Assembly: GCF_000831645.3 (NCBI RefSeq)
Contig: NZ_CP012559.1
Coordinates: forward strand, 496,001-560,000
DNA from: Companilactobacillus heilongjiangensis
GTDB lineage: Bacteria; Bacillota; Bacilli; Lactobacillales; Lactobacillaceae
Direction: 5' to 3'
Length of the DNA stretch: 64,000 nt
Part shown: positions 4,021-64,000 of the stretch, one piece after another
How positions within the stretch are numbered: the stretch's first letter is position 1
Layout: each line of letters begins with the position of its first letter
Position numbers and translations under genes: made by a program
The notes under the pieces: model-generated
The model's input: only the letters and a program-made list of their open reading frames with translations
What the model was told of the DNA's origin: nothing
Database searches by the model: none

Positions 4021-4206
4021 TATGCCGTTTCCAGAGCTGAGAGTATTCATCTGCTACGCGGCACGGTCCGATCCAAAGTACGGTCTCGAACCTCAGTTGA
4101 AGACTTTCCAAAAACCGGAAAGTCTCCAACACGTCCGGTGGTGTAATTGCTAAAGCAATAACGCCACTTTCGCGGCCAATGAATACTCTCAGCTCTTCCA
4201 ACTCAG
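4021..4206 (-). repeat. R1: cloverleaf-like structured repeat, arm type A
   Basis: Copy R1 of the window-wide family lies in the gap between the convergent lysC and aldo/keto reductase genes. Its outer arms AGAGCTGAGAGTATTCAT (4033 on) and ATGAATACTCTCAGCTCT (ending near 4197) are exact reverse complements. Inside are the three family hairpins: P4 (GATCC...GGTCTC), P3 (ACTTTCC...GGAAAGT) and P2 (TTGC TAAA GCAA inside GGTGTAA...TAACGCC). The TATGCCG end faces lysC, 21 bp away. An open frame of 69 codons runs across it by chance and is not called. Confidence 0.85.
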
Positions 4207-4302
4207 TTATTTTTTGTGAGTGATGATTCTTTTACCATTTAAATAAATTGTTACTAGAATTGCGACATCAATTTTCATCGTTCAACGTTTAGATTTATAC
4301 AA

Positions 4303-4345
4303 AAAAATTCCAAGCTAGGATTAATATCCTAACTTGGAATTTTTT
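4303..4345. terminator. bidirectional terminator between lysC and aldo/keto reductase
   Basis: The arms AATTCCAAGCTAGGA and TCCTAACTTGGAATT are near-perfect inverted repeats around a short loop. They are flanked by A-rich sequence on the left and T-rich on the right, so the site can end transcription from both convergent genes. Confidence 0.85.
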
Positions 4346-5219
4346 ATTTGGCATTATTTTGATTTGTGTAAGTAGTTGATTTTTCCAAAAATTCTTTGTC
4401 ATCGGGATCAGCACCAACACGTTTGTCACTGTCCAATGTAGCGATTTTAGCCATTTCATCAGCTGTTAAGTCAAAGTGATAATCGAACAAATCGATATTT
4501 TCTTTGATACGACTTTCGTGAGTTGACTTAGGGATGACAATTTCACCACGTTGAATGTGCCAACGTAAGATGATTTGAGCAGGTGATTTACTGTATTTCT
4601 CAGCGAATTCTTTAATAACAGGATTATCCACAACCTTGTTCAAACCGGCACCGAGTGGACTCCATGATTCGTGAGCGATGTGCTTTTCTTGAAGATATTC
4701 GTGAAGGTCAGTTTCTTGTAGATAAGGATGCGTTTCAATTTGATCGACCATTGGTGCAATCGTAGCAGTTTTCATCAATTGTTCGATATGGTGAGCTTTA
4801 AAGTTTGAAACACCGATTGCACGAATTTTTCCAGCTTTGTAAAGATCTTCCATTGCACGCCAGTTTTCTTCAAAGCCAGCAGCAGGCCAGTGAATTAAGT
4901 AAAGGTCTAAATAATCTAAACCTAATTTTTGTAGTGAATTATTGAATTGAGCAATAGTTTCATCATAACCACGAATGTTGTTCCAAACTTTAGTTGTGAT
5001 GAAAAGATATTTACGATCAATGCCGGATGCTTTAATAGCCTTGCCGACAGCCTCTTCATTGTCATAAAAGCTAGCAGTATCAATGTGTCTGTAACCACTC
5101 TCGATAGCCCATTTAACACTGTTCAAAACTTGTTCGTCATCCATTCTGAATACTCCCAAACCAACTTGGGGAATCATGACGCCATTTGCTAATTCGATAT
5201 AAGGAATATTTGTAGCCAT
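4344..5219 (-). CDS. aldo/keto reductase
   Basis: An NADPH-dependent aldo/keto reductase of 291 aa, within the usual 275-300 aa of the 2,5-diketo-gluconate reductase/YvgN-like branch; it reduces aldehydes or ketones to alcohols in the cytosol. The catalytic tetrad is visible: Asp in YRHIDTASFY, Tyr in FYDNEE, Lys in TTKVWN and His in YLIHWP. The C-terminal IPKSTHESRIKEN is the NADPH 2'-phosphate-binding motif. The start is ATG at 5219 with AGGAGGT upstream. A -10 element (TATAAT on the minus strand) lies at 5249-5254, inside the region shared with the divergent phn promoter. The physiological substrate cannot be inferred. Confidence 0.92.
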   Translation of the reverse strand: MATNIPYIELANGVMIPQVGLGVFRMDDEQVLNSVKWAIESGYRHIDTASFYDNEEAVGKAIKASGIDRKYLFITTKVWNNIRGYDETIAQFNNSLQKLGLDYLDLYLIHWPAAGFEENWRAMEDLYKAGKIRAIGVSNFKAHHIEQLMKTATIAPMVDQIETHPYLQETDLHEYLQEKHIAHESWSPLGAGLNKVVDNPVIKEFAEKYSKSPAQIILRWHIQRGEIVIPKSTHESRIKENIDLFDYHFDLTADEMAKIATLDSDKRVGADPDDKEFLEKSTTYTNQNNAK

Positions 5220-5309
5220 AAACCTACCTCCTATTTATTTTCAATTCCATTATAGCCTACTTAAATGTATATAAAGTGTATAAATCATGTAAAGAATTCA
5301 GTTAATTAT

Positions 5310-5348
5310 TTTACAGAAAGTTAACTGATACTTTACATAGCTTTGTTA
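5310..5348 (+). promoter_or_regulatory. tandem PhoP-box-like repeats upstream of phnD
   Basis: Hexamers TTTACA (5310), TTAACT (5321), TTTACA (5332) and TTGTTA (5343) are spaced exactly 11 bp apart, matching the TT(A/C/T)ACA-N5 arrangement known for Bacillus PhoP boxes. The same 11-bp array occurs upstream of pstS. A weak -10 candidate (TTAAAT) is at 5352-5357. Control by phosphate starvation is inferred. Confidence 0.65.
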
Positions 5349-5396
5349 ACCTTAAATTGTTCAAAAAAAATTGATATAGAAAGTTGGGAGTTATTT

Positions 5397-6440
5397 ATGA
5401 AAAAAGGGCGATTATTAACCGCTTTTCTAGGGGTATTCTTGCTACTTACTGGGGTTCTAGCAGGTTGTTCATCAAAGAGTTCAGCTGCAGGAAAAGCAGG
5501 AAGTGCAGATAGTAAAGAAATTACTATGGTTTTCTATCCAAATGAATCAGCAAAGAACTTTACTGCTTCACGTAAAGCGTTGCAAGAAGAACTACACAAG
5601 GCAACAGGTAAGAAAATCAACATCCAAACAACAACTGATTACAACGTAGCTATCGAAGCTATTTCATCAGGTAAGGCACAATTGGCCTTCATGGGTGCTG
5701 ATGGTTATATCCAAGCTCATGCACAAAACAGCAAGGTTGAACCATTACTTCTTCAATCAGGTCCAGATGGTACTACAAAGGGTGCTAGTTACCGTTCATA
5801 CCTAATGGTTAACAAAGATAAAGCCAATCAATACAAGAAAGACGGCAAGTACAATATCGACAAGATTAAGGGTCAAAAAGCTTCATTCGTTTCAACAAGT
5901 TCAACATCAGGTTTCGCCGTTCCAACAGATGAGATTCAAAAGCACTTCAAGTTGAAGAACAAGGATGACCTTTCAGAAGGTGGCAAATTCTTCGATAAAG
6001 TTCTTTATGGTAGTACTCACCCAGGTTCAGCAATCAACTTATTGAAGGGTGACGTTGACGTTGCTGCCTTTGATGATATTGATTTGACACCATTCCTAAA
6101 AGTTTCAGAAGGTAGTTATGACAAGGTTGGCTCAACATTCAAAGTTAAAGATGATGCTGATGCTCCATTCTCAGAATTCAAGGGTAAGGAATTAGTTAAC
6201 ATCTCAGTTCTACCAGTTCAAAACGGACCTTTCGTAGTTAATACAAAAGCTCTAAGCAAGAAAGATACAGACGCAATTGCAAAGCACTTTACATCAAAAG
6301 ATATCACAAACAACAAAGACCTATTCTCAGATGGTAAAGGTAAGACACCAACATTATGGCAAAAGAAGAGCGACAAGATGACTCTTCTAAAAGTTACTGA
6401 TGATTGGTACAAACCAACTCACGAACTAATTGGTAAATAA
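5397..6440 (+). CDS. phnD: phosphonate/phosphite ABC transporter substrate-binding lipoprotein
   Basis: Extracellular binding lipoprotein (347 aa) that captures phosphonate or related P-compounds and delivers them to the PhnCE importer. The start is the ATG at 5397, behind GGGAG and directly before a classical lipoprotein signal: MKKGR, a hydrophobic run, then the lipobox LAGC with the acylated Cys at residue 24. A longer in-frame GTG start would bury this signal. The mature part has the type-2 periplasmic-binding fold features of PhnD (ITMVFYPNES near the N-terminus, FVSTSSTSGFAVP in the middle, and a VLYGSTHPGSAINLL segment). It is the first gene of a six-gene operon. Because phnX and phnW follow, 2-aminoethylphosphonate is the most likely ligand (inference). 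Confidence 0.92.
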   Translation: MKKGRLLTAFLGVFLLLTGVLAGCSSKSSAAGKAGSADSKEITMVFYPNESAKNFTASRKALQEELHKATGKKINIQTTTDYNVAIEAISSGKAQLAFMGADGYIQAHAQNSKVEPLLLQSGPDGTTKGASYRSYLMVNKDKANQYKKDGKYNIDKIKGQKASFVSTSSTSGFAVPTDEIQKHFKLKNKDDLSEGGKFFDKVLYGSTHPGSAINLLKGDVDVAAFDDIDLTPFLKVSEGSYDKVGSTFKVKDDADAPFSEFKGKELVNISVLPVQNGPFVVNTKALSKKDTDAIAKHFTSKDITNNKDLFSDGKGKTPTLWQKKSDKMTLLKVTDDWYKPTHELIGK

Positions 6441-6449
6441 GAGGTAGCT

Positions 6450-21907: not shown

Positions 21908-22098
21908 TGGGTGGCTCCGGTTTCGAGGAGATAAAGTCTGCTGTGGGACCGGCTCGAGCCAGAGTGCGGTCTCGACCCTCGATTTTGAGCTTTGCAAAGA
22001 CCGCAAATCTCAAAATACGTCCTGTGGTGTAAGAACGACTTCGTCGTCCTAACGCCACTGCTACTGCTGACTTTATCTCCTCGAAACCTCCGGCTGCT
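21908..22098 (-). repeat. R2: cloverleaf-like structured repeat in the ATPase leader
   Basis: The arms GGTTTCGAGGAGATAAAGTC and GACTTTATCTCCTCGAAACC are a perfect 20-bp pair, unrelated in sequence to the type A arms. The core has P4 (CTCGAGCC...GGTCTCGA), P3 (TTTTGAG...CTCAAAA) and P2 (GGTGTAAGAACGAC/GTCGTCCTAACGCC). The GCC end faces the ATPase gene 35 bp away. It lies between the ATPase promoter and its start codon, so it should be transcribed as part of the leader. Confidence 0.85.
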
Positions 22099-24567: not shown

Positions 24568-24768
24568 TATGCCGTCTACAGAGCTGGAAAATATTCTCAA
24601 GCTGTGCGGAACGACCCGAGCCAAAGTGCGGTCTCGGGCCTCGGTTTGAAGCCTTGACACAGTTCGTCAAGTCTCCAAACACGTCCGGTGGTATAAGTAC
24701 GGGAGATTCCTCCCGTACTTATACCACTACCACGGCACACAAATATTTCCCAGCTCTTCCGACTAGTT
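24568..24768 (-). repeat. R3: cloverleaf-like structured repeat, arm type A
   Basis: Arms AGAGCTGG-AAATATT and AATATTTCCCAGCTCT pair along about 15 bp with one bulge. P4 is extended (CCCGAG...CTCGGG), a compensated change from other copies. P3 is CTTGAC...GTCAAG and P2 has a GTACGGGAG/CTCCCGTAC tip, the longest in the window. TAGTTAA occurs directly at both outer ends. The TATGCCG end faces the PTS gene. Confidence 0.85.
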
Positions 24769-29927: not shown

Positions 29928-30118
29928 TATGCCGCCGGAACTTGCCAGTGAATTGCACTCCGCTATGGGGACCGGTCCGAGCCGGAGTGCGGTCTCGAAC
30001 CTAGATTTGAATCCTTGCCAAAGTGCGGCAAGTATCCAAACTCGTCCCGTGGTGTAATGGCTAAAGCCATAACGCCACCTTCATTGCGGGTGCAATTCAC
30101 TGGCAAGCTCCGGCTTGG
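29928..30118 (-). repeat. R4: cloverleaf-like structured repeat
   Basis: Arms CTTGCCAGTGAATTGCA and TGCAATTCACTGGCAAG are a perfect 17-bp pair of private sequence. P4 (TCCGAGCC...GGTCTCGAA), P3 (CTTGCC...GGCAAG) and P2 (GGTGTAATGGC TAAA GCCATAACGCC) are all present. The TATGCCG end faces manO, 53 bp away. It forms an outward-facing pair with R5. Confidence 0.87.
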
Positions 30119-30228: not shown

Positions 30229-30260
30229 ATATTGGAGGATGAACTTTATTCGTAAAATAG

Positions 30261-30446
30261 ATTAGTTGGAAGAGCTGGGAGTATTCATCAGCCGCGAAAG
30301 TGGCGTTATTGCTTTAGCAATTACACCACCGGGCGTGTTGGAGACTTTCCGGTTTTTGGAAAGGCTTCAACCGAGGTTCGAGACCGTTCTTTGGCTCGGA
30401 CCGTACCGCGCAGCAGATGAATACTCCCAGCTCTGGAAACGGCATA
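30261..30446 (+). repeat. R5: cloverleaf-like structured repeat, arm type A
   Basis: Arms AGAGCTGGGAGTATTCATC and GATGAATACTCCCAGCTCT are a perfect 19-bp pair. In forward orientation it shows P2 (GGCGTTATTGC TTTA GCAATTACACC), P3 (ACTTTCC...GGAAAG) and P4 (GGTTCGAGACC...GGCTCGGACC). The GGCAT end faces the 30558 gene, 112 bp downstream. An in-frame open stretch across it is not considered coding. Confidence 0.87.
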
Positions 30447-35402: not shown

Positions 35403-35598
35403 TATGCCACCTACGGGTTCGAGGGAGAGAGGCAGCCAGCTGTGGGACCGGCTCGAGCCGAAGTGCGGTCTCGACCCTCGATTTTGAGCCGAAGACCGCG
35501 TCTCAAAATACGTCCTGTGGTGTAAGACCGGAAAGTACGCCGGCCTAACACCACTACCACTGCGGTCTACCTCTCTCCCTCGAACCCTTCGGCTAGTG
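35403..35598 (-). repeat. R6: cloverleaf-like structured repeat
   Basis: Arms GGGTTCGAGGGAGAGAGG and CCTCTCTCCCTCGAACCC are a perfect 18-bp pair of private, purine-rich sequence. P4 (GCTCGAGCC...GGTCTCGACC), P3 (TTTTGAG...CTCAAAA, short loop) and P2 with a GACCGG...CCGGCC tip are present. The TATGCC end faces the 35124 gene. It pairs outward with R7 across a 178-bp spacer without genes. Confidence 0.86.
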
Positions 35599-36003: not shown

Positions 36004-36882
36004 ATGGATCATGAAAAAGTAACGGGTAAACGTTTCTTTTACGTAACTGTGCTGAATGTGTTGATTACTATTACTGAATTTGTCGGAGGTTTCTTTTCCG
36101 GAAGCCTAGGATTGATCTCTGATGCATTCCACAATTTGGAAGATTCGCTGTCAATTGTAATTTCATACGCAGCTAACGTTATTGGCAAGCGCAAAAATAA
36201 TACTAAGAAGACTTTTGGATACAAGCGGGCGGAAATTTTAGCGGCGTTCGTTAATTCGATTGTCCTAGTCGTGATAACTCTGATGATGGTTGTTGAATCA
36301 TTTCGGCGGCTATCACAACCGCAACATATCAATGGTAAATTGATGATGATTGTTTCTTTGATCGGCTTAGCAGCTAATTTTATTTCAATGTTGATGTTGT
36401 TGAGCGGCTCAAAGCATAATTTAAATATTAAAGCGACGTTTCTACATATGCTGACAGACACATTGTCTTCGGTTGGCGTTTTTATAGCTTCAATCTTTGT
36501 TATTTTATTCAATTGGAATTGGGTCGACCCAATCATAACAATTGTAATTGCCATTTGGCTCTTAAAAGAAGCCTATACGGTTGTTTCGGAAACAATTAAT
36601 ATCCTGATGGAGGCCAGTCCGAAAATTGATTTGGACGCTGTTCAGGCTGCAATTTTGACAATCCCTGAAATTGTTAAAGTTCATCACGTGCATTTATGGA
36701 TGATTGACGAAAATCACATCATGTTGGATGCCCATATTAATGTTAAGAGAAATTGTAATATGGCTGAGCTTGACGGCCTTTACGATCAAGTTGATAAGTT
36801 GTTGAAAGATAAATTTAATATCAAGCATGTAACTTTACAGGCTGAGTGTTCAAGAGGATTAGATAATTCGCTGATAGATTAG
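36004..36882 (+). CDS. czcD: CDF-family zinc/cation exporter
   Basis: A six-helix cation diffusion facilitator (292 aa) that expels zinc or a related divalent metal in exchange for protons. The transport site has the paired motifs of the zinc subgroup: HNLED in helix 2 (SDAFHNLEDS) and HMLTD in helix 5 (FLHMLTDTLSS). The C-terminal cytosolic domain (HHVHLWMIDENHIMLDAHI) is the metal-sensing dimer domain. The ATG follows GAGGTGG. It lies between R7 (upstream) and R8 (downstream). The gene symbol reflects family, not proven substrate. Confidence 0.88.
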   Translation: MDHEKVTGKRFFYVTVLNVLITITEFVGGFFSGSLGLISDAFHNLEDSLSIVISYAANVIGKRKNNTKKTFGYKRAEILAAFVNSIVLVVITLMMVVESFRRLSQPQHINGKLMMIVSLIGLAANFISMLMLLSGSKHNLNIKATFLHMLTDTLSSVGVFIASIFVILFNWNWVDPIITIVIAIWLLKEAYTVVSETINILMEASPKIDLDAVQAAILTIPEIVKVHHVHLWMIDENHIMLDAHINVKRNCNMAELDGLYDQVDKLLKDKFNIKHVTLQAECSRGLDNSLID

Positions 36883-36962
36883 TTGTTATAGAATTTGTTA
36901 AAAAATAAATTTTTTTATTATTATGAAAAAGTAATCTCAACAAGCTATTTATGAAGAACACA

Positions 36963-37146
36963 ATAGCTGGAAGTTGAAAGAAAAATATAGTCAGTAGTGA
37001 AGGTGGCGTTATTGCTTTAGCAATTACACCACGGACGACTTTTGAGACGTGGTTTTCGGCTCAAAATCGAGGCTCGAGACCGTACTTTGGCTCGGGCCGG
37101 TCCTCACAGCAGACTATATTTTTCTTTCAACTGGAGGCGTACCGCC
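36963..37146 (+). repeat. R8: cloverleaf-like structured repeat
   Basis: Arms GTTGAAAGAAAAATATAGTC and GACTATATTTTTCTTTCAAC are a perfect 20-bp pair. The core (P2 with TTGC TTTA GCAA, P3 TTTTGAG...CTCAAAA, P4 GGCTCGAGACC...GGCTCGGGCC) is nearly identical to R10, although the outermost arms differ. It lies midway between czcD and the mutase-like gene. Confidence 0.87.
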
Positions 37147-37224
37147 TCGTTTGAGATAAATAAGAAATCAGAATTGTGCTAATATTAGAGGGTAATTCTA
37201 TATGAAAGTTGGGAATGTCGTAAT

Positions 37225-39333: not shown

Positions 39334-39513
39334 TTAGCCGGAGGTCGTCAGTAATATATAGTCAGCAGTGAAGGTGGCGTTATTGCTTTAGCAATTACAC
39401 CACGGACGACTTTTGAGACGTGGGTTTCGGCTCAAAAGCGAGGCGCGAGACCGAACTTTGGCTCGCACCGGTCCTCACAGCAGACTATATATTACTGACG
39501 ACCGTAGGCGGCC
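39334..39513 (+). repeat. R10: cloverleaf-like structured repeat abutting a stop codon
   Basis: Arms GTCGTCAGTAATATATAGTC and GACTATATATTACTGACGAC are a perfect 20-bp pair. The core is almost the same as R8. P4 shows GCGCGAGACC...GGCTCGCACC, with an extra compensated pair. Its GCGGC end directly touches the stop codon of the leftward 39801 gene. It pairs outward with R9. Confidence 0.88.
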
Positions 39514-42280: not shown

Positions 42281-42416
42281 GCAGTGGCTCTAAAACGAGT
42301 TCCGACAGGGCAACTCCTTCCGCTTTGCATACCTTCCCAAATCATCCGCAAAGTGCGCGGATAATTCGTGAAGCTACGCAAATGCTCGGGAGCTGACCGC
42401 CCTGTCTCCACTCTCT
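42281..42416 (-). repeat. S1: second structured repeat family, at the kup stop
   Basis: A 136-bp element with nested pairs: GACAGGGC/GCCCTGTC (outer), TTTGC-TACCTTC/GAAGCTACGCAAA (middle) and ATCCGC/GCGGAT (inner). Read with kup, it begins at the stop codon itself (TAGAGAG). It is closely related to S2 and S3 by the conserved TCCTTCCGCTTT and AAATGCTCGG segments, but not to the R family. Confidence 0.75.
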
Positions 42417-44501
42417 CTAATCTTCATCATCGTCATCAATTTCATCGTCAACTTTAATATCTTTCAAAGCTGAACGATCTTTTCTGACTAAACGTAAACG
42501 ATTGAGTGAAACTTTTCCAAGTACTAATGGTACTCGTTCTTCGACTACATCACTGTAGGAAAGTCCGAACCAGTTTGCTGGTGAGATGAACTCTTGTAGG
42601 AAGAAGCGCATGTGAATTACACTCTTCTTCAAACTGCTGATCTTTGTATCTGGTGATAAAATTTCTCTGATAATAACGAATGAGAAGTCACCAACATCAC
42701 GGTCAGGAATAGTTGTATATTTCTGTGGTTGCTGCTTGATTTCACCGTTTGACATCATATCATTCACAACTTGACGCAAGTAGACGTTAACTTTCTGATC
42801 AACTCTGAATCCTAAGTAAAGTTGAACGCTGACCATGTAGTCGGTATCGAAAGTTTCAACGCTATATGCAGCTGTATATGGTTCATCGGTAACGTTAACT
42901 GTTACGAACCAGTAGACTTGAGCGCGCTTTGGACGCTTATCAAGGATTGAATAAAGAATATTCTTCTTGATACGGTAGCCATCGTGAATCTTAGTTAAGT
43001 AAACCAAATTAGTTGTATAAAGTGGGTAACTAGGGTCTTTTCTCAAATCATTCAATTGATGCTTGAAAGCTAATAGTGAAACGAAGTGACTCCGATATGT
43101 GTTGTCATCTTTAAGTCTTTCACCGTATCTCCAGATGAACATAACAGCGATAAGTAGGGCGGCGATAAACATAGTAATGTAAGCACCGTGAATGAACTTG
43201 CTACTGTTAGTTACGAAGAAAATACTTTCAATAATAAAGAAGAAACTGATAATAATCGTTGTAAAGAAGCGATTAGCACGTTTCATTAACAACCATTGAT
43301 GGAGCAAGATTGTTGTCATTAACATTGTGATTGTAATTTCTAGACCGTAGGCATTTGACATGTTTTCGGAAGTTTTGAAATAGAAGACGATGAACAAACA
43401 AACGACCCAGATAATTGAGTTAACTGTTGGAATATAAAGTTGACCTTTGAAATTAGTAGGGTAATAAGTTTTCAATCTTGGGAAAATCTTCAATTTGGTA
43501 GCTTCAGATACTAGTGTGTATGAGCCTGAAATCAAGGCTTGAGAAGCAATGATTGCGGCCATAGCTGAAAGGAAGATTCCGAAGAGTCTGAAATCAGCTG
43601 GAATAGATTGATAGAACGGATTCATTGCGGAACCCATGTTTTGAAGCGTGTGATTATCTTTAACACTTAAAATCCATGTTGCTTGACCTAAGTAACTTAG
43701 TAACAAGCAAATCTTGACGAATGGCCAACTAGTGTAAATGTTAGGTCGACCAACGTGTCCCATATCTGAATAGAGGGCTTCAGCACCAGTAGTAGCAAGG
43801 AAAATACTACCAAGGATGAAGACACCGCGGATATTGATTGGACTTCTTAATAGTTCAATCGCGTAGTATGGGTTCAAAGCTCGTAACATAGTCCAGTCGG
43901 ATGAAAGATTTAGGATTCCCATAAGACCAAGGAAAGCAAACCAAACTAGCATGATAGGACCGAAAGCTCGACCAATCAATTGTGTCCCAAATCTTTGTAT
44001 AAAGAAGAGGGTCGACAAAATAATCAGCGTGACAATAATTACTTGGTTTTGAGTACTAATCAAAACGGTATTGTGAATGGCAATGCCTTTCAGACCTTCG
44101 ATTGCGGCAGTGACAGTAACAGCAGGTGTCATCATACCGTCGGCTAGGAAGGTTGCCCCACCAACCATAGCCGGAATAATTAGCCACTTAGCACGCTTTC
44201 TAACCAAAGTGTAGAGGGCGAAAATACCACCTTCACCACGGTTATCAGCACGCAAAGCAATTAAAACATACTTAATTGTCGTGACTAAAGTCAGTGTCCA
44301 AAATATTAATGAAACACTGCCTAGAATAAAATTAGTGGACATCTTATCAAGTCCACCATTCCCAACCATTAAAGAGTGCATAACATATAGAGGTGAGGTA
44401 CCAATATCTCCATAAACGATTCCTAAAGCAATTAGGAACCCTGCAACACTCTTTTTTGAATGGGGGTTATTCTTCAATGAATTTAGTTGTGTTTTTTCCA
44501 T
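42417..44501 (-). CDS. kup: KUP-family potassium transporter
   Basis: A potassium uptake protein (694 aa), proton-coupled, in the cell membrane. The N-terminus holds the family signature ALGIVYGDIGTSPLYV and there are about twelve helices to residue 460, followed by a cytosolic C-terminal domain. The C-terminus is very acidic (VDDEIDDDDED). The start is the ATG at 44501 behind GGAG; an ATG ten codons earlier lacks a site. Its stop codon TAG lies at the edge of S1. Confidence 0.93.
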   Translation of the reverse strand: MEKTQLNSLKNNPHSKKSVAGFLIALGIVYGDIGTSPLYVMHSLMVGNGGLDKMSTNFILGSVSLIFWTLTLVTTIKYVLIALRADNRGEGGIFALYTLVRKRAKWLIIPAMVGGATFLADGMMTPAVTVTAAIEGLKGIAIHNTVLISTQNQVIIVTLIILSTLFFIQRFGTQLIGRAFGPIMLVWFAFLGLMGILNLSSDWTMLRALNPYYAIELLRSPINIRGVFILGSIFLATTGAEALYSDMGHVGRPNIYTSWPFVKICLLLSYLGQATWILSVKDNHTLQNMGSAMNPFYQSIPADFRLFGIFLSAMAAIIASQALISGSYTLVSEATKLKIFPRLKTYYPTNFKGQLYIPTVNSIIWVVCLFIVFYFKTSENMSNAYGLEITITMLMTTILLHQWLLMKRANRFFTTIIISFFFIIESIFFVTNSSKFIHGAYITMFIAALLIAVMFIWRYGERLKDDNTYRSHFVSLLAFKHQLNDLRKDPSYPLYTTNLVYLTKIHDGYRIKKNILYSILDKRPKRAQVYWFVTVNVTDEPYTAAYSVETFDTDYMVSVQLYLGFRVDQKVNVYLRQVVNDMMSNGEIKQQPQKYTTIPDRDVGDFSFVIIREILSPDTKISSLKKSVIHMRFFLQEFISPANWFGLSYSDVVEERVPLVLGKVSLNRLRLVRKDRSALKDIKVDDEIDDDDED

Positions 44502-44716
44502 ATAAATAATCTCCAAAAATAAACAGTTCAACGGCGATTATAACATTAGAATTGCTAGTATGAAACCACTTAATTTTGGTCTAGTGGGTTTCGCTATATA
44601 TCACAGCAATCAATCGTAGTTGGTATTAATTCATATCTGAAAGTTGAAGTTTCAGATAACCGTTGTCGCAACCATCTAAGTTGTAATTTATCTGCTCATT
44701 CATATCACAAAAAATA

Positions 44717-44901
44717 GATTAGTTGGAAGAGCTGAGAGTATTTACCTGCAGCGAAAGTGGTGTTATGGCTTTAGCCATTACAGCACCGGGCGTGTTGGAG
44801 ACTTGCCGGTTCTGCAAGGCTTCAACCGAGGTTCGAGACCGCTCTTTGGCTCGGACCGTACCACGCAGCAGATGAATACTCTCAGCTCTGGAAACGGCAT
44901 A
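44717..44901 (+). repeat. R11: cloverleaf-like structured repeat, arm type A
   Basis: Arms AGAGCTGAGAGTATT and AATACTCTCAGCTCT are a perfect 15-bp pair that continues imperfectly. P2 (GGC TTTA GCC tip), P3 (CTTGC...GCAAG) and P4 (GGTTCGAGACC...GGCTCGGACC) are present. The GGCAT end faces the 3' end of pepX, 21 bp away. The rest of the kup-pepX gap shows only a small inverted repeat (TATCTGAAAGTTG/TTTCAGATA). Confidence 0.86.
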
Positions 44902-44921
44902 CTTAACTAAACTTTCAACCT

Positions 44922-47345
44922 TTAGTTTTTATGTATTGGAACGACTAATGAAGAATCATTGGCCTGAACTGTATATTTGATATTTTGATTACCACGAACT
45001 GTCATACCAAAATCTGTTGCATAGACGATCAAACCTAATTGATGGCCTTTGAGTAATTTGTAAAATGTTGGTTGAAGCTCAACATCAATATTATAGAAAA
45101 CATTTGGTTTTAGTTCATCAACTTTATAGTTGTTTTCACGATTCTGTAAATTAATGTGACCCTTAGTGATCATCTTGAACGGTGTTGGTTGTGCATAGGT
45201 AAATTCACGTAAATCATCTTCACGCCAATCGTATGTTTCAGCTAAACTATTTTTCGATAATAACGTTGGTGAAACGGTCAAACGTTTGGCCTCACCGTAA
45301 TCAATTAATTGGAAACTCAAGAGTCCGATATCTTCACTGGAACTAACTTTTAGTTGAACATGAACTTTACCGTCAATTGTTAAGTTGTCAGATAAAGCAT
45401 CAGTCTTGTAAATTAGTTGATTGTCAGTCAATTTCTTATCGGCAGCAATCAAATCATGTTCCCAAGTATCGTTATGCTTAGCATAATTATCGAAGGTTGG
45501 TTGATCCAAGTTGTCTTGGAATGATTGAGTTGATGGAGTAACTGTATCAGTTGACAATTTATCACTTGATAAATTATATTTAACTTGTTGATTTTCGGCG
45601 TTATCCCAGTCTTTGTAAGCTGTCCAGTTCTCAGTCTTCGTATTATCTTGGATGATAACATTAGGGATGATTTCCTTGGCTTGATTGTCAATTCCGAGTA
45701 ATTCATGAGTCAGCCAAAGGTTGATGATATCGTTATAGTCGATAGAACGAAAGGCATTAATGTAAATGTGTTGTCCTTGGTGCAAAATGATCTTTTGTGT
45801 AACGCCGTTATGCTTGATACCATTCCAAAGTCGTTCAACGTTTCTAGGTTTAACATTCCAGTCATTTAAGCCGTGGACCATGAAGACGTCAGCTTTGATA
45901 TTCTTGAAATTCTTGTGGTAATTACGAGCATCCCAGAAAGTATTGTAATCGCCAGTTGTTCGATCTTCGCCAGCTTGGATTGCTTTAATTTGGTCGTCCC
46001 ATTGTGATTTTATATTGTGAAAATCACCAGGCTGTAAACGACGACTGAATGTTTCTTCTGCCAAAACGTCAGCGTCTTCGCCAGGGAAGCCACCGGGAGC
46101 GATAACTAGTCCGCCGTCACGGTAGTAGTCGTACCAATTAGAAATGGCAGCTTCACTAATAACAGTCTTTAATCCTGAAACACCAGTAGTTGCAGCGGCA
46201 GTAGCTAATGTTCCTAAGTATGAACGACCAGTCATGGCAACTTTTTGATTTGACCACCATGCCTTAATTTTAATGTTGTCAGTTCGGTTGGTGAAAGCAG
46301 GCAATTGACCAGTCAACCACTTGATGATTGCAACGGTTGAAATAGTTTCGTCAGGATCACCAGTAGTTCTGAAACCGTCGGAGTCTTTTGTACCGATACC
46401 GGCCATATAAACGACCGCAAAACCACGAGCTAGGAAGTAGTCATTTAAAGTGTAAGAACTTTCTCTAGAAAAATCCTGTTCGGCTTTTTTAGTTTCGCCA
46501 TCGATTTTTCTAGGGGCAGGTATTTCTTGATTGTCATTTTTATATTCGATATCTGAATATTTTAAATTATTTGGTTGTTTGTGTGTTAAAGGTACGTTGA
46601 CGTTGTGAGTTAGCTTTTCACCGGTCTCATCGTTAGTACCTTGGTTGTACGGACTAGCAGTGTAGAGAACAGGTACTTTCAAGCCGTTTTCAGTTTCACT
46701 AGGACGTAAAATTTCAGCTTTTAGTAAATCACGTTTGCCGTCATGGTCACTGTCTTGAGGTGATTCTACGTAAACGACTTCACGAATTAACTTATGTGGG
46801 TTGAATACAGGCAAAGTCTTACCATTGAATAGCATTGGCTTAGTGATTTGCCCATAGAACTTAGTGAAGTAACCTTTGGATGCGAGGGAGTCAATATATG
46901 TTTGTCCCATCTTGTTGTGAGTTGCTAATAACCAATACCAAGCGGACTTTAACTCGTCAATGGTGAACGAAGCGCCGTTATGGTCAGCAACCATCAATTG
47001 AATTTTTTCCATGGCAGCTAGTGGATCGGTAAATGAGAAGTCCACGTCAGGATTGAATTTGAGAAGTTGTAGGGCAACGTTATAGAAAGCTACGACTGAG
47101 ACGTGAGTGGCTGAATCGATATATTCACTCAAATTTTGGTCGTCAGTTGCCATATATGTTTTGAGCGTTTCTTCAAAAGTAGAAGAAGTTTTATCTTCTA
47201 AAAAACTCTTGCTTAAAAAACTGATCCAAAGTTGCAGGGGATTGGTTTCTGACTCGTTATCTTTATCTAGAAAACCGATTTCGGTGAGCTCTGTTAATTG
47301 ATCTTTAAAGTCTGTTGGACGGATTGCAAATTGGTTATTTTTCAT
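44922..47345 (-). CDS. pepX: Xaa-Pro dipeptidyl-peptidase
   Basis: A cytosolic serine peptidase (807 aa) that removes N-terminal X-Pro dipeptides, used in growth on casein-like peptides. The alpha/beta-hydrolase nucleophile Ser is in [11 protein letters not shown]. The catalytic Asp lies in the [14 protein letters not shown] region, and the catalytic His is in [10 protein letters not shown]. The helical N-terminal and jelly-roll C-terminal domains account for the rest. The start is the ATG at 47345 with AAGGAG upstream. It is monocistronic, flanked by R11 after the stop and R12 before the start. Confidence 0.94.
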
Positions 47346-47428: not shown

Positions 47429-47604
47429 AATGCCGCCTCCGGCCACCAGAAATTTTCGCCTGCAATGGGACCGGGTCGAGCCAAGGTCTCGCCCCTCGCT
47501 TTTGAGCCAAAGTGCGGTCTCAAAAGACGTCCGTGGAGTAAGGAGTAAACTCCTAACACCACCTTCATTGCGGGTGAAATTTCTGGTGACCGGAGGCTAG
47601 TTGG
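47429..47604 (-). repeat. R12: cloverleaf-like structured repeat
   Basis: Arms CCACCAGAAATTTC and GAAATTTCTGGTG pair, continued by CCTGCAATG/CATTGCGGG. P4 is short (GTCGAGCC...GGTCTCGCCC), P3 is TTTTGAG...CTCAAAA, and P2 has a GGAG TAAA CTCC tip. The ATGCCG end faces the pepX start, 84 bp away, so it may lie in the pepX leader or its promoter region. Confidence 0.84.
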
Positions 47605-47762: not shown

Positions 47763-47897
47763 GCGGTGGCTCTGAAACGAGCTGCGCAGGCCAATTTCTT
47801 CCGCTTTGCCTAACTTCCCAAATCATCCGCAAAGTACGTGGACAATTCGTGAAGTTAAGCAAATGCTCGGAAATTCCCAGGCCTGCTCCGCTCTCTA
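47763..47897 (-). repeat. S2: second structured repeat family
   Basis: Outer arms GCAGGCCAATTTC and GAAATTCCCAGGCCTGC, middle TTTGCCTAACTTC/GAAGTTAAGCAAA. Compared with S1 both stems have changed on both sides, so pairing is preserved. It is in direct tandem with S3, downstream of pepC. Confidence 0.72.
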
Positions 47898-48024
47898 ATT
47901 GAAACGAGCTACGACAGGGCAACTCCTTCCGCTTTTCATAATTAAGCAAATCGCCCGCTAAGTTCGGCGTGCAATTCACTTAATTACGAAAATGCTCGGG
48001 AGCTGACCGCCCTGTCTCCGCTCT
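47898..48024 (-). repeat. S3: second structured repeat family, at the pepC stop
   Basis: Outer arms GACAGGGCAACTCC/GGGAGCTGACCGCCCTGTC, middle TCATAATTAAG/CTTAATTACGA. Read with pepC it begins at the stop codon (TAGAGAG), exactly as S1 does at kup. Confidence 0.74.
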
Positions 48025-49368
48025 CTATGCTAATGCTCCCATTGGATCCCATGGTGCTAATACTTTTGGTTCTTTTGATTCTGTTTCAAAGGTATTCTTG
48101 AGGTCTTCTGGTAAGTACTTCTTGTTGATAACTAGTTGGTAAACGAATTCGTCGAACCATGAGTCGCTCATTACGAAGTAACCTTTTGTTCCGACTTTTT
48201 CACCCCATGAGTTTTCAACTTTCCACTTCAATGGGTTGCCGTTTTCGTCTAAATCAACGCCGGTGATAACCATGGCATGTGTCATCATGCTTTCGATGTA
48301 GTCAAGGCGTTCTGCCTTTGTCATCTTCAAGTCAGTGTTTAGTAGGCCCTCAAGGTCATAGATGTTTGTATCCATGATACCAATCTTACGATCTGAACTT
48401 TGGCCAACATCACTACCAAACCAAACTGTTTCGCCAGCTTGGAGTTGTTTAACGGCTAGTTTCTTGAAGTCATTGATTTCAAGGTTCAAGTGACGTACTT
48501 GACGTCCGCCGATTACGTTACCAAGCATTTCAACTGTGTAAACGTGGTTGTATGGCTTGTCAGCTGTTGGAGCGTTGATTGTTGAAATGTAACTGTCTAA
48601 GTCCCAGCCAACATACTTCTTGAAGAATTCTTGAGGTGTGATGCCTGTTTCTTTGTGATAGTTCTTATCGTCATCACGGTAAGCCCAGTCAAATTTTGTA
48701 GGAGGAACGCCGACTGTGTAAACCAAAATCTTGTAGATTTCACTTAGTAATTCGTTCTTCTTACGTTCGATGTCTTCTTCAGACTTGTTGTCGTTAACAA
48801 GGTTACGCAAGATGATAGCGTCTTTACGTAATTTCTTGTTAAGAACGTTATTTAGTTCAGATGAGTTTGTACGACTGAATGTATCTGGCATTACGGCCTT
48901 AGGAACGACACCATATTTTTGAACAAGTGCCATAACCATATCCCATTGACCACCATCTTGTTGAGGTGTTGCCATTAGGAAGTCGACTTTACGGTCGCCA
49001 GTTGGTAAAGCAGCTGTGTTGATAACATTTTCGAAGAAGTAGTTAGATTTTTCTAGTTTGTCCCAGAAAAGCATGTAACCTTGTGAAAGTTCAAAGCCCT
49101 TGATCTTAAAGTTATCTTGAAGAGGGTGTCTCATAGTATTCAATGCTGCGAAAACCCAGCATAATCCAGATTGTTTTTGGTCGGCAACTTTACCAGTATC
49201 AATTTCAACTGAGAAAGTAGGGTCCATAGCAACTTTAGATGCAATTGTTTCACTTGATTTGAACAAACCATTGTTAGCAACAGCGTTTTTAATTGCTGAA
49301 GAACCTGGTGTGTTTTCAAAAGCGTTTTTAAAATTATCTAATTCTGATGATGTGATTTCTTTAGTCAT
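48025..49368 (-). CDS. pepC: aminopeptidase C
   Basis: A cytosolic cysteine aminopeptidase of the bleomycin hydrolase family (447 aa), normally a hexamer. The triad is visible: Cys in QKQSGLCWVFA (with the oxyanion Gln just before), His in MMTHAMVITG, and Asn in WKVENSWGEK. The C-terminus ends in MGALA, close to the usual self-trimming tail. The start is the ATG at 49368 behind GAGGAGAG. It is the last gene of a leftward GNAT-rpiA-pepC group, 13 bp after rpiA. Its TAG stop lies at the edge of S3. Confidence 0.94.
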   Translation of the reverse strand: MTKEITSSELDNFKNAFENTPGSSAIKNAVANNGLFKSSETIASKVAMDPTFSVEIDTGKVADQKQSGLCWVFAALNTMRHPLQDNFKIKGFELSQGYMLFWDKLEKSNYFFENVINTAALPTGDRKVDFLMATPQQDGGQWDMVMALVQKYGVVPKAVMPDTFSRTNSSELNNVLNKKLRKDAIILRNLVNDNKSEEDIERKKNELLSEIYKILVYTVGVPPTKFDWAYRDDDKNYHKETGITPQEFFKKYVGWDLDSYISTINAPTADKPYNHVYTVEMLGNVIGGRQVRHLNLEINDFKKLAVKQLQAGETVWFGSDVGQSSDRKIGIMDTNIYDLEGLLNTDLKMTKAERLDYIESMMTHAMVITGVDLDENGNPLKWKVENSWGEKVGTKGYFVMSDSWFDEFVYQLVINKKYLPEDLKNTFETESKEPKVLAPWDPMGALA

Positions 49369-50487: not shown

Positions 50488-50670
50488 GTTTGTTTCTCCA
50501 GAGCTGAGAGTATTAACCTGCTATGCGGAACGGCCCGAGCCAAAGTGCGGTCTCGACCCTCGGTTTGAATACTTGCACAGACCGCAAGTATCCAAACTCG
50601 CCCGGTGGTGTAATGGCTAAAGCCATAACGCCACTTTCACAGCTGGTTAATACTCTCAGCTCTTCCGATT
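50488..50670 (-). repeat. R13: cloverleaf-like structured repeat, arm type A
   Basis: Arms AGAGCTGAGAGTATTAACC and GGTTAATACTCTCAGCTCT are a perfect 19-bp pair. P4 (CCCGAGCC...GGTCTCGA), P3 (ACTTGC...GCAAGT) and P2 (GGC TAAA GCC tip) are present. It lies in the divergent gap between the GNAT gene and dut. Confidence 0.86.
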
Positions 50671-50699
50671 TTTTTGATTTGATATATTCTAAATCGTTG

Positions 50700-60192: not shown

Positions 60193-60197
60193 TTAAG

Positions 60198-60388
60198 TTT
60201 GCCGCTTCCGGTTTTGAGTGACGAAGTCTGCTATGTGACCGGTGCGAGCCAAAGTACGGTCTCGCGCCTCGATTTTGAGCTTCGCAAAGTACGCGAATCT
60301 CAAAATACGTCAGTGGTGTAAGAAAGGAAAATCGCATTTCTAACGCCACTACCACAGCAGTCTTCATCACTCAAACCTCCAGCTAGTT
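60198..60388 (-). repeat. R15: cloverleaf-like structured repeat after nusG
   Basis: Arms TTTTGAGTGACGAAGTC and GTCTTCATCACTCAAA pair with one C-to-T change that keeps a wobble pair on one strand. P4 is GTGCGAGCC...GGTCTCGCGCC, with an extra compensated pair. P3 is TTTTGAG...CTCAAAA and P2 has an AGAAA...TTTCT tip. It pairs outward with R16 across a 162-bp spacer that holds no recognised feature. Confidence 0.86.
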
Positions 60389-60550
60389 GGTCTGTGACGA
60401 AGTTTGTTCATATATATAATTAAGCAATATGATAGATGATGAGTTACCGATATTTTGGGATTAATACCTTGAGTAGTTAGTTATAAATATTAATTCATAT
60501 GTCGTTTGATTGTATGTAAGGAATTAAACAGTAAACATCAAGCAACCCAA

Positions 60551-60733
60551 GAGTCGGAGGGGGCAAGTAAATTAACCAGCAGTGAAGGTGGCGTTAGGGC
60601 TTTAGCCCTTACACCACGGGACGAGTTTTGAAACTTGCGAACTGTGCAAGGTTCAAAATCGAGGTTCGAGACCGCACTATGGCTCGGACCGGTCCCCACT
60701 GCAGGTTAAATTTATTTGCCCCCGGAGACGGAA
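60551..60733 (+). repeat. R16: cloverleaf-like structured repeat before rplK
   Basis: Arms GGGGGCAAGTAAATTAACC and GGTTAAATTTATTTGCCCCC pair along about 19 bp with a bulge. P2 (GGGC TTTA GCCC tip), P3 (CTTGC...GCAAGG) and P4 (GGTTCGAGACC...GGCTCGGACC) are intact. The GACGG end faces rplK and its L1-type leader. Confidence 0.87.
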
Positions 60734-60802: not shown

Positions 60803-60843
60803 TGTGGGAGAGAAAATTTTGATTCTCATCATGACCACATCAC
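60803..60843 (+). promoter_or_regulatory. L1-type ribosomal leader upstream of rplK
   Basis: GTGGGAG, AAAATTTTGATTCTC and GACCACAT form the same small structure found again before rplA (GTGGGAG ... ATTCTCC ... GACCACA). This resembles the L1 binding site known from firmicute L11-L1 operons, used for translational feedback by L1. Confidence 0.68.
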
Positions 60844-60863
60844 GGAACAAGGAGGTATGCACC

Positions 60864-61286: not shown

Positions 61287-61342
61287 AAGACTAGATTTAA
61301 GCAGTTTACAGGAATGTGAAAGCATTCTTAACAAGTGGGAGG

Positions 61343-61374
61343 GGAAAATATAATTCTCCGAAAGACCACAAAGC
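61343..61374 (+). promoter_or_regulatory. second L1-type site between rplK and rplA
   Basis: GTGGGAGGGGAAAATATAAT, then TCTCC and GACCACA, repeat the leader motif seen upstream of rplK. It lies immediately before the rplA ribosome site and fits autogenous control by L1. Confidence 0.66.
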
Positions 61375-61389
61375 AAGGAGGAACTTAGC

Positions 61390-62070: not shown

Positions 62071-62094
62071 TTAGTGTTGACTAACTACCAAAAT

Positions 62095-62222
62095 AATGAT
62101 AGATTAATATAGTTGATTTCTACCGAAGACTCAGGTGATGAAAGTCTTAATATCCTGCCGAGGCCAGAAGATTATTTCACTTAATCTCTGTGTCCCTTGG
62201 GCACAGAGATTTTATTTTTTTA
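62095..62222 (+). ncRNA. L10 leader
   Basis: The gap before rplJ carries the L10 leader pattern: CTACCGAAGACTCAGGTG, CTTAATATCCTGCCGAGGC, and then a terminator hairpin AATCTCTGTGTCCC/GGGCACAGAGATT with a T-rich tail. Binding of L10-L12 to this leader is known to favour premature termination. Confidence 0.88.
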
Positions 62223-62274
62223 AGCCGAAATTTGTAGATAATTAACTAAAAAATTGTGGAGGTGAAACGTAATA

Positions 62275-62778
62275 ATGAAGCAAGATGTATTAGCAGCAAA
62301 ACAAGCACAAGTTGATGAAATTGCTAAACAACTAACAGGCGCAAAATCAGTAATCGTTGTTGATTACTTAGGTCTAACAGTTGAACAAGCTACAGAAATG
62401 CGTGCAGAATTACGTGAACAAGGCGCTACAATGCAAGTTATTAAGAATACAATCTTAAGACGTGCAGCTGAACAAGCCGGCGTTGAAGGTCTCGAAGAAT
62501 ACTTCGTTGGACCAACAGCCATTGCTTACTCAGAAACAGATCCTGTTGGACCTGCTAAAGTAGCAGCTAAGTTTGCCAAAGATGTTGACGCCGTTGAAAT
62601 TAAGGGTGGAATCATCGAAGGTAAAGCAGCAACTCTTGAACAAATTCAAGAACTTGCAACATTACCAGACAGAGATGGCTTGCTATCTATGTTGGTATCT
62701 GTATTACAAGCTCCAGTTCGCGACTTTGCTATGGTTGTTAAGGCCATTGCAGACAAAGACGACGAACCTGCCGCTTAA
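62275..62778 (+). CDS. rplJ: 50S ribosomal protein L10
   Basis: L10 (167 aa) anchors the L7/L12 stalk. The N-terminal rRNA-binding segment (AKSVIVVDYLGLTVEQATEMR) and the helical C-terminal part that carries L12 dimers are present. The ribosome site is GGAGGTG. It is controlled by the L10 leader and co-transcribed with rplL. Confidence 0.95.
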   Translation: MKQDVLAAKQAQVDEIAKQLTGAKSVIVVDYLGLTVEQATEMRAELREQGATMQVIKNTILRRAAEQAGVEGLEEYFVGPTAIAYSETDPVGPAKVAAKFAKDVDAVEIKGGIIEGKAATLEQIQELATLPDRDGLLSMLVSVLQAPVRDFAMVVKAIADKDDEPAA

Positions 62779-62819
62779 TTAAATTAAACTATAACTCATA
62801 ATATTTGGAGGATACTATA

Positions 62820-63188
62820 ATGGCTTTAGATACACAAAAGATTATCGATGATTTAAAAGATGCATCAATCCTAGAACTTAACGACCTTGTTAAGGCTATT
62901 GAAGAAGAATTTGACGTTAAGGCTGCTGCTCCTGTTGCAGCTGCTGGTGCTGCTGGTGCAGACGCTGCTGCTGAAAAGGATTCATTCGATGTTGAACTTA
63001 CAGAAGCTGGACAAGAAAAGGTTAAGGTTATCAAGGAAGTTCGTGGTATCACAGGACTTGGCTTGAAAGACTCAAAAGACCTAGTTGATGGCGCTCCTAA
63101 GGTTATCAAGGAAGGCGTTGCTAAAGCTGACGCTGACGAAATGAAGTCAAAACTTGAAGCCGTTGGTGCTACAGTTACATTGAAGTAA
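62820..63188 (+). CDS. rplL: 50S ribosomal protein L7/L12
   Basis: L7/L12 (122 aa) recruits translation factors. It shows the N-terminal dimer domain, an Ala-rich hinge ([19 protein letters not shown]) and the C-terminal domain with [19 protein letters not shown]. The start is the ATG at 62820 behind TTGGAGG; a longer in-frame start is a shadow. A terminator follows. Confidence 0.96.
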
Positions 63189-63208
63189 TACACTTTAATG
63201 ATAAAATT

Positions 63209-63233
63209 AATCCTCGTAAGAGGATTTTTTTTT
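63209..63233 (+). terminator. terminator of rplJL
   Basis: Stem AATCCTC, loop GTAA, stem GAGGATT, then a long T run. Confidence 0.9.
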
Positions 63234-63258
63234 ACCCTTAAAAGGAAAGGTGAAACGT

Positions 63259-63861
63259 ATGGCTAATCAATATTTTGAAAATGATCCAAGTCTGGAACAT
63301 GAAATCAAGAATTTTAATTTTACCTTGCGCAATCATAATTTCGACTTTATGTCTGATAGCGGAGTATTCTCTCGTCAGACAGTCGATTATGGCTCACGTG
63401 TGTTGATTGATGCAATCGATTTTCAAAACATTCCGAGTGGTAATATTTTGGATGTTGGTTGTGGCTATGGCCCAATCGGTTTAGCTTTGGCTAAAGATCA
63501 ACCAAGTCGCCAAGTTACAATGGTTGACGTCAACTTGCGTGCTTTAGATTTGGCTAAGAAAAATGCCAGTGGCAACCAAGTTAAAAACGTTGAGATTTTT
63601 GAATCAGATACTTATAAGAGCGTTGAAGGCAAGTATGCGTTGATCGTCTCTAATCCACCAGTACGTGCAGGTAAGAGTGTTGTAACGTCAATTTTGGCCG
63701 ATTCTAAGGACTATTTGGCTGCTAATGGAGAACTCTGGATTGTCTTACAAAAGAAACAGGGTGCTCCTTCAGCTAAGAAGTTGATGGATAAAACATTTGG
63801 CAACGTTGAAGTTGTGACTCGGGATAAGGGATATTATATTTTAAGAAGCAAGATGGTTTAG
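63259..63861 (+). CDS. RsmC-like class I methyltransferase
   Basis: A SAM-dependent methyltransferase (200 aa) of the RsmC/YbxB type, which usually sits after rplL in Firmicutes and may methylate 16S rRNA. The SAM loop is NILDVGCGYGPIGLALA, and the catalytic NPP motif is in LIVSNPPVRAGKSVV. The start is the ATG at 63259, with AAAGG upstream. R17 begins two bases after the stop codon. Confidence 0.9.
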   Translation: MANQYFENDPSLEHEIKNFNFTLRNHNFDFMSDSGVFSRQTVDYGSRVLIDAIDFQNIPSGNILDVGCGYGPIGLALAKDQPSRQVTMVDVNLRALDLAKKNASGNQVKNVEIFESDTYKSVEGKYALIVSNPPVRAGKSVVTSILADSKDYLAANGELWIVLQKKQGAPSAKKLMDKTFGNVEVVTRDKGYYILRSKMV

Positions 63862-63862
63862 T

Positions 63863-64000
63863 GGGTTTCCGTCTCCAGGACTGAGAATATTTACCCGCTA
63901 TGCGGACCGGCCTGAGCCAAGGTCTCAGCCCTCGGTTTGAAGCCTTACCAAAGTGCGGTAAGTCTCCAAACTCGCCCGGTGGTGTAAGAGCTAAAGCTCT
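63863..64000 (-). repeat. R17: structured repeat cut by the window edge
   Basis: The left arm GGACTGAGAATATTTACC, P4 (CTGAGCCAAGGTCTCAG), P3 (CTTACC...GGTAAG) and the start of P2 (GGTGTAAGAGC) are present. The right arm lies outside the window. The GCC-type end is two bases from the methyltransferase stop. Confidence 0.82.

What the first reader, a model, noticed from the sequence alone, without database searches (positions are those of the whole stretch)
4021..64000. A large family of four-way structured repeats (R1-R17), about one per 4 kb
Seen directly: at least seventeen intergenic copies of a 180-200 bp element in both orientations. Each has an outer inverted repeat closing three inner hairpins. 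Copies are R1 4021, R2 21908, R3 24568, R4 29928, R5 30261, R6 35403, R7 35777, R8 36963, R9 39093, R10 39334, R11 44717, R12 47429, R13 50488, R14 58261, R15 60198, R16 60551 and R17 63863. Core words such as TTACACCAC, GGTTCGAGACC and TTTGGCTCGG recur nearly unchanged and look more GC-rich than the surroundings. I know no named element with this layout. It could be a non-autonomous mobile element, a structured RNA, or both.
Basis: partly seen in the sequence, partly recalled or inferred. Interest (0 to 1): 0.92.

Follow-up and report, generated by a model that had tools for sequence, protein, structure and literature searches.

The report
Three-hairpin mobile DNA repeats, Lactobacillaceae
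The window's food bacterium carries an estimated several hundred copies of a folded stretch of DNA between its genes; relatives show that it moves as a passenger of at least two unrelated transposase systems, and its stems change like DNA palindromes rather than like a normal RNA.

Summary
In detail: a covariance model finds all 17 copies; R9 lacks two hairpins and R17 is cut. The host is Companilactobacillus; I estimate about 500 copies per genome. The body, about 181 bp, has an outer stem, a sub-stem with two hairpins, and a third hairpin. No Rfam match. It is found in 89 of 350 family genomes, 12 of 40 genera.

It is a mobile DNA module. In C. huachuanensis it sits in a 321-bp MITE with exact 7-9 bp target duplications in 13 of 22 copies and ends shared with broken IS4-family elements. 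In the window's species it also sits in a second MITE whose ends match a broken IS982-family element of C. nantensis. Several window copies have empty sites in relatives.

Stems covary strongly, but G-U is about as rare as A-C, unlike an RNA control: the constraint looks DNA-like. Close neighbours sit tail-to-tail in 68 of 78 cases. Copies at sites shared between species keep their stems but are as different as any two copies. Why the fold is kept is not shown.

The parts
4021..4204 (+). R1 body (ends of all bodies are approximate to a few bases); inside a vehicle-A MITE at about 3997-4292 with degenerate ends
   Evidence: empty site in C. huachuanensis
21912..22096 (+). R2 body
24570..24757 (+). 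R3 body, vehicle-B type head (GGTGCTAGTTAAATATGCCG, by eye)
29931..30116 (+). R4 body, + member of pair R4/R5
30258..30444 (-). R5 body, - member of pair R4/R5
35404..35588 (+). R6 body, pair R6/R7
   Evidence: no intact copy at this site in G034, C. huachuanensis (an end remnant remains), C. mindensis, C. kimchiensis or L054
35774..35960 (-). R7 body, pair R6/R7
36962..37140 (-). R8 body; insertion spans about 36882-37155
   Evidence: empty site in G034, C. huachuanensis, C. mindensis, C. kimchiensis and the MAG L054
39096..39205 (+). R9, deletion derivative lacking the P4 and P5 hairpins
   Evidence: E 1.2e-05
39334..39513 (-). R10 body
   Evidence: same intergenic site and orientation in G034 and C. 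nantensis
44717..44899 (-). R11 body, inside a vehicle-A MITE at 44637-44925
   Evidence: empty site in G034, G011, G023
47430..47603 (+). R12 body
   Evidence: same site in G034
50488..50672 (+). R13 body
   Evidence: absent in C. mindensis, C. kimchiensis and L054
58262..58444 (-). R14 body
   Evidence: same junction in C. nantensis
60199..60386 (+). R15 body, pair R15/R16
   Evidence: same junction in G034 and C. nantensis
60550..60732 (-). R16 body, pair R15/R16
   Evidence: same junction in G034
63866..64000 (+). R17 body, cut by the window edge

Best explanation
The repeats are copies of a non-autonomous mobile DNA module. Its conserved body (about 181 bp) folds into an outer stem, a sub-stem with two similar hairpins, and a third hairpin. 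It spreads by hitchhiking inside MITEs whose short ends are cut by ordinary DDE transposases acting in trans. Vehicle A has CTAAAGGTTGAAAG ends (IS4 family) and duplicates mostly 7-8 bp of target; it is abundant and young in C. huachuanensis. Vehicle B has ACGYRTGGTGCTAGTT ends (IS982 family) and duplicates 8-9 bp; it occurs in the window's species, G034 and C. nantensis. Searches with pieces of both transposases found none in the window's genome, so its copies look like remains of past bursts. Shown: ends, target duplications in part of the copies, empty sites, partner elements with the same ends, structure and covariation. Inferred: that these transposases moved the copies, and that the fold matters as DNA (cruciform or single strand) rather than RNA. 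That the fold is kept by selection on DNA structure plus copying between the arms is the least certain step.
For: 28 TIR-to-TIR spans in 346 kb of C. huachuanensis, 26 with a core; exact 7-9 bp duplications in 13 of the 22 tested; 529 vehicle-A ends in that genome against 11 for the reversed pattern. IS4-family pieces between the same ends. Vehicle B: 46, 39 and 33 ends in three genomes against controls 1, 1, 0; exact 8-9 bp duplications in 3 of 8 spans; a 961-bp IS982-family element between the same ends. Empty sites for R1, R8, R11. No match to either transposase piece in the window's genome. DNA-like stems: G-U 58 and A-C 72 of 3284 cells in two other genera, G-U 47 and A-C 37 of 2086 across 11 genera, against G-U 67 and A-C 2 of 532 in the L10-leader control. 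No gene-orientation bias.
Against: Most copies in the window's species have lost recognisable ends: of 227 contexts (own genome and G034) only 2 keep both A ends and 8 both B ends at up to 4 mismatches per end, and single A heads and tails (14, 15) barely exceed controls (8, 9). The partner transposase genes seen are broken, and their pieces score below the curated whole-protein cut-offs. Of the three exact vehicle-B duplications one flanks a 101-bp derivative without a core and one a partial core. The vehicles were shown only in Companilactobacillus; no ends were worked out in the other genera. In the window's species six stem positions are often A-C on one strand (G-U on the other) against one the other way, which could favour RNA or single-stranded DNA. 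A passive MITE does not by itself explain conserved mismatches and loops across genera.
Confidence: 0.8

Rival explanations
1. The body is a functional structured RNA (regulator, terminator or processing site) that has spread to many intergenic regions and is selected in place.
For: 95.4% of cells paired and double changes at 40 of 44 pairs across 11 genera; loops and mismatches conserved; at intergenic sites shared between species stem differences are mostly compensated: 106 double Watson-Crick changes against 16 breaks in 17 comparisons, and the copies there show no sign of replacement; T-rich stretch after the outer stem in the window's species.
Against: G-U about equal to A-C, unlike the RNA control; singles between co-directional genes are 16 sense and 24 antisense, and pairs occur in all gene contexts; some sites are empty or reduced to ends in relatives; no Rfam match.
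Confidence: 0.12
2. REPIN/RAYT-like element: a Y1 (HuH) transposase recognises the hairpins as single-stranded DNA and moves inverted pairs of bodies.
For: Strong inverted pairing: 68 of 78 close neighbours are tail-to-tail in the window's species, 14 of 19 in two other genera with no head-to-head pair; conserved hairpin loops and mismatches.
Against: Y1_Tnp does not track the repeats: of 14 genomes with best core E below 1e-20, 5 have a strong Y1 match (E up to 1.2e-30), against 6 of the other 22, one of these with stops inside (my tally); no clear replichore bias (approximate split); young copies carry DDE-type ends and target duplications.
Confidence: 0.08

Closest known systems
Bacterial MITEs (non-autonomous derivatives of insertion sequences; recalled, for example Correia, RUP)
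   Same: Short, terminal inverted repeats shared with an IS, target duplications, intergenic, many copies.
   Different: A conserved three-hairpin body of about 181 bp shared by two vehicles with unrelated ends, found in 12 of 40 genera sampled, tail-to-tail pairing.
REP/REPIN elements with RAYT transposases (recalled)
   Same: High copy number, hairpins with conserved mismatches, inverted pairs.
   Different: Body several times longer, no linked Y1 transposase, DDE-type ends and target duplications.
IS4-family and IS982-family insertion sequences
   Same: Same end sequences as vehicles A and B respectively.
   Different: The IS copies carry transposase genes (broken in those seen); the repeats do not, and share only the ends.
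Structured RNA families of Rfam
   Same: Consensus multi-branched secondary structure with strong covariation.
   Different: No family matched; G-U pairs are as rare as A-C mismatches.

Membership tests
MITE | Terminal inverted repeats | tested here: met
   Vehicle A in C. huachuanensis and vehicle B; in the window only R1 and R11 keep both A ends, at up to 4 mismatches per end
MITE | Target site duplication | tested here: met
   13 of 22 exact 7-9 bp; 3 of 8 exact 8-9 bp; imperfect for R11
MITE | No coding capacity, ends shared with a transposase-bearing element | tested here: met
   L106 and L133 (IS4 family); L218 (IS982 family). Only broken copies were seen
MITE | Occupied and empty sites between relatives | tested here: met
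   R1, R8, R11; copies in C. huachuanensis absent from the window
MITE | Experimental mobilisation by the partner transposase | not testable with these tools
   needs a transposition assay
REPIN/RAYT | Linked Y1 (HuH) transposase | tested here: not met
   Y1_Tnp in 18 of 36 genus genomes, not tracking the repeats
REPIN/RAYT | Inverted pairs | tested here: met
   68 of 78
Structured RNA (Rfam-type) | Match to a described family | tested here: not met
   gathering scan of the window finds only the L10 leader; permissive scan of 601 bases with R4/R5 gives chance matches
Structured RNA (Rfam-type) | Covariation beyond controls | tested here: met
   the alignment was fitted to the structure
Structured RNA (Rfam-type) | G-U tolerated more than A-C | tested here: not met
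   control. Across 11 genera G-U 47 against A-C 37 is only a slight excess, 12 of the 47 from one pair
Structured RNA (Rfam-type) | Transcription | not testable with these tools
   no RNA-seq on hand

The most novel reading that the evidence does not exclude
The body is an independent DNA-structure module, older than its vehicles. It passes between unrelated transposase systems across the Lactobacillaceae, and at fixed sites its fold is kept long after insertion by a DNA-level process (selection for a cruciform or protein-bound hairpins, or copying between the arms), so that sequence drifts to the family-wide background while the stems stay paired. Tail-to-tail pairs are its working form.
Probability: 0.25. 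Interest if true: 0.88.

Novelty: new variant of a known kind. Interest (0 to 1): 0.72.

Why it matters
A complex folded body shared by many genera looks like a structured RNA by the usual covariation test, yet its stems lack the G-U signature of RNA. If the reading holds, covariation alone can mistake mobile palindromic DNA for RNA genes, and the G-U to A-C ratio is a simple check. It would also show one passenger body using two unrelated transposases. By my estimate (about 500 copies of 181 bp) the bodies make up about 3% of the window's genome, and copies at fixed sites let one ask directly what keeps a dispersed DNA fold intact.

Tried and rejected
Rfam: only the L10 leader at gathering level over the whole window; a permissive scan of 601 bases around R4/R5 gave chance matches only. 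Plasmids and phages: blastn with one copy (R4) found nothing in 72,556 plasmid and 50,697 phage records. Terminator or gene-linked function: no orientation bias; genes were called by a crude ORF rule of my own, and 16 of 182 cores overlapped such an ORF. Replication-strand bias: none among singles, 28 + and 34 - in one half, 12 + and 10 - in the other; the split at 1,395,000 is approximate, since the skew of two held stretches disagrees with it. Y1 transposase as mover: no association. Larger TIR-to-TIR spans as autonomous elements: L107, L108 and L217 hold ordinary genes between separate repeat ends. L110 holds an ordinary gene too, but also a small transposase-like match of 32 residues. L109 was fetched and not studied. 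A first impression that outer arms are random between copies was an artefact of ungapped comparison; clustering shows two large arm groups of 107 and 69 of 201 plus small ones. Pair members are not more alike than random copies (0.799 against 0.814), so pairs are not one element with corrected ends.

Homogenisation by species: at 10 shared intergenic regions cores and arms seemed to group by species (10 and 6 of 1024 label swaps), but one search showed that only 5 of the 10 have nearly the same junction, and at those 5 the grouping is gone (16 and 14 of 32 swaps). I dropped the claim that resident copies are overwritten, and lowered the novel case from 0.30 to 0.25. Two notebook entries are out of date: they give 14 of 22 target duplications (the table gives 13) and the species grouping.

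Papers: ten library searches gave no listing that points to this repeat; one of them returned no paper. I judged listings by title and start of abstract. Of three papers I ran term searches: passages in PMC2267715 and PMC3231932, and no occurrence of my terms in PMC3733652. Subscription papers are not covered. The comparisons with Correia, RUP, REP, REPIN and RAYT are recalled, not tested.

Rows dropped: the core model was built without R9 and R17. Target duplications were tested on 22 of the 28 TIR spans. Alignment A3 holds the best 150 of 222 hits, some from overlapping loci (147 distinct rows). In one search five partial or weak copies were left out. Two of 30 control loci, L194 and L199, were left out of the L10-leader alignment without a reason.
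Full report
CHECKING THE OBSERVATION. I aligned the 17 copies, folded single copies (R1 and R4 at z -9.2 and -9.3; R6 at z -7.2 with a different inner MFE fold) and built a covariance model of the 132-nt core from 15 of them. It finds all 17 in the window with E from 8.3e-35 to 1.2e-05. The layout is an outer stem P1; a short stem P2 that closes two hairpins, P3 and P4; and a third hairpin P5. P3 and P4 look like the same hairpin twice: GAGCC, a loop like AAAGTGC, then GGTCTC (by eye). R9 has lost P4 and P5, and R17 runs off the window. Rfam gives nothing but the L10 leader elsewhere in the window.

HOST AND ABUNDANCE. The pepX protein of the window is 92% identical to that of Companilactobacillus huachuanensis and 88% to that of C. 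nantensis; equal contig lengths show that G011 and G023 are those two species. The word GGTTCGAGACC occurs 277 times in the genome against 1 for the reversed control. In 539,029 bases of this genome held (partly chosen near hits) a profile finds 220 cores, 203 of them full. Scaling by the core word gives about 500 copies per genome, an extrapolation. In 96 copies with both ends recognised the body has a median length of 181 nt.

DISTRIBUTION. Matches occur in 28 of 36 genomes of the genus and in 89 of 350 genomes and 12 of 40 genera of the family; few candidates were scored per genome and weak matches may be missed. Some genera have a shorter core of about 100 nt. One copy as query finds nothing in the plasmid and phage collections.

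MOBILITY. The R8 site is empty in five relatives, and R11 is empty in G034, G011 and G023; R1 is empty in C. huachuanensis. The inserted stretch is longer than the folded body. In C. huachuanensis 28 spans between inverted CTAAAGGTTGAAAG ends were found in 346 kb, 26 with a core. The consensus of 22 of them is 321 bp, and 13 of the 22 have exact target duplications of 7-9 bp. At up to one mismatch that genome has 529 such ends against 19 in the window's genome; the reversed-pattern controls are 11 and 6. Between the same ends lie decayed IS4-family transposases: L106 (NCBIfam IS4 model at E 2.5e-22 over 74 residues) and L133, found by similarity to it. Matches to the L106 piece occur in 6 of 36 genus genomes, not in the window's.

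A SECOND VEHICLE. Other copies in the window's species have different ends, ACGYRTGGTGCTAGTT: 46 in G000, 39 in G034, 33 in G023, with controls 1, 1 and 0. I looked at 8 spans between such ends. Five hold a core in 214-360 bp, one of these (L222, 214 bp) only part of it; a 101-bp span has none; a 2,982-bp span is two repeats around ordinary genes. The eighth is a 961-bp element in C. nantensis with two pieces of an IS982-family transposase. Exact 8-9 bp duplications flank L222, L223 (the 101-bp span) and L224, 3 of the 8. A match to the IS982 piece was found only in C. nantensis, 1 of 36 genus genomes. So one folded body sits in two MITEs with unrelated ends.

RNA OR DNA. Across 11 genera (54 hits from 40 loci, 53 distinct) 95.4% of cells pair and 40 of 44 pairs show double changes: 524 cells against 126 in shuffles and 51-103 when partners are slid. 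The alignment was fitted to the structure, which favours it. Yet wobble is nearly absent. In A6 (81 hits from two other genera) there are 2962 Watson-Crick cells, 58 G-U, 72 A-C and 192 others. In the 11-genus set there are 47 G-U and 37 A-C in 2086 cells, 12 of the G-U from one pair. In the L10-leader control, 28 sequences of the same bacterial family with an RNAalifold structure, there are 445 Watson-Crick, 67 G-U, 2 A-C and 18 others; 25 of the G-U come from one pair. In the window's species (147 sequences) G-U is 151, of which 118 come from one fixed position, and A-C 328, of which 307 come from six positions; outside those both are under 1%. The outer arms give 3529 Watson-Crick, 27 G-U and 53 A-C over 199 copies; the local alignment used there favours matches. 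Stems that keep Watson-Crick pairs with G-U and A-C about equally rare are what a double-stranded palindrome or DNA copying between arms would give. The six positions with A-C on one strand are G-U on the other, so a single-strand preference in this species is not excluded. Conserved mismatches argue against arm copying as the only force.

PAIRS. Of 78 neighbouring cores less than 700 bp apart in the window's genome, 68 are + then - (tail-to-tail), 5 - then +, 5 the same way. In two other genera it is 14 of 19, with no - then +. In C. huachuanensis, where many copies are young, 10 of 18 are + then - and 8 point the same way. Members of a pair are not specially alike. Tails of single copies share sequence (23 matches among 70) while sequences beyond the head do not (0). 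I have no shown mechanism for the pairing; insertion preference for the tail of a resident copy is a guess.

SHARED SITES. In 10 intergenic regions the window's genome and G034 have a copy in the same orientation. At 5 of them the host sequence aligns close to the body in both: within 10 bases for R1, R12, R15 and R16, within 17 for R10; at the other 5 (R2, R3, R5, R13, R14) it does not, and those may be separate insertions. Over 21 same-region comparisons in three species, including the doubtful ones, core identity is 0.746 on average (median 0.722), against 0.708 for different sites in different species and 0.752 within species. So copies at shared places are hardly more alike than any two copies. 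Over all 10 regions the copies seemed to group by species (10 of 1024 label swaps for cores, 6 for arms). At the 5 close-junction sites this is gone: cores within species 0.730, between 0.729, same site 0.720, 16 of 32 swaps; arms 14 of 32. I therefore do not claim that resident copies are overwritten. In 17 comparisons stem differences are 106 double Watson-Crick changes, 19 other double changes, 38 A-C, 18 wobble and 16 breaks. In the 10 comparisons that I take as same-junction the double changes are 58 Watson-Crick and 13 other, with 9 breaks. That fits evolution in place with the stems kept; but only copies that still match the model were counted, which biases this towards intact stems. 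Several sites in C. huachuanensis keep only the outer ends, so copies are dispensable there.

CONCLUSION. It is best described as a passenger body of MITEs, moved by ordinary transposases, with a DNA-like fold. What keeps the fold at old sites, and why copies pair tail-to-tail, is the open and interesting part.

Noticed in passing
window 42286-42418, 47767-47890, 47896-48028: A second repeat family, about 130 bp, folding as one long irregular hairpin; in two of the three copies its loop (AAAGTGC or AAAGTAC) resembles the P3/P4 loops. About 13 loci in 539 kb of the genome.
   Followed up: partly
   Followed up: no
G011:C7 (C. huachuanensis) at the sites of R14 and R15/R16: Only outer ends remain, two left ends joined head to head, as if a tail-to-tail pair had lost its middle.
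   Followed up: partly
L144, L157, L158, L150, L164 (other genera): A shorter core class of about 96-104 nt with one inner hairpin fewer (by eye).
   Followed up: no
L133 positions 987-2429: An IS4-family element of about 1443 bp whose ends match vehicle A; its gene is broken. A vehicle-B type end lies just upstream.
   Followed up: partly
window 62105-62224: L10 leader (RF00557); its family was used as the RNA control.
   Followed up: yes
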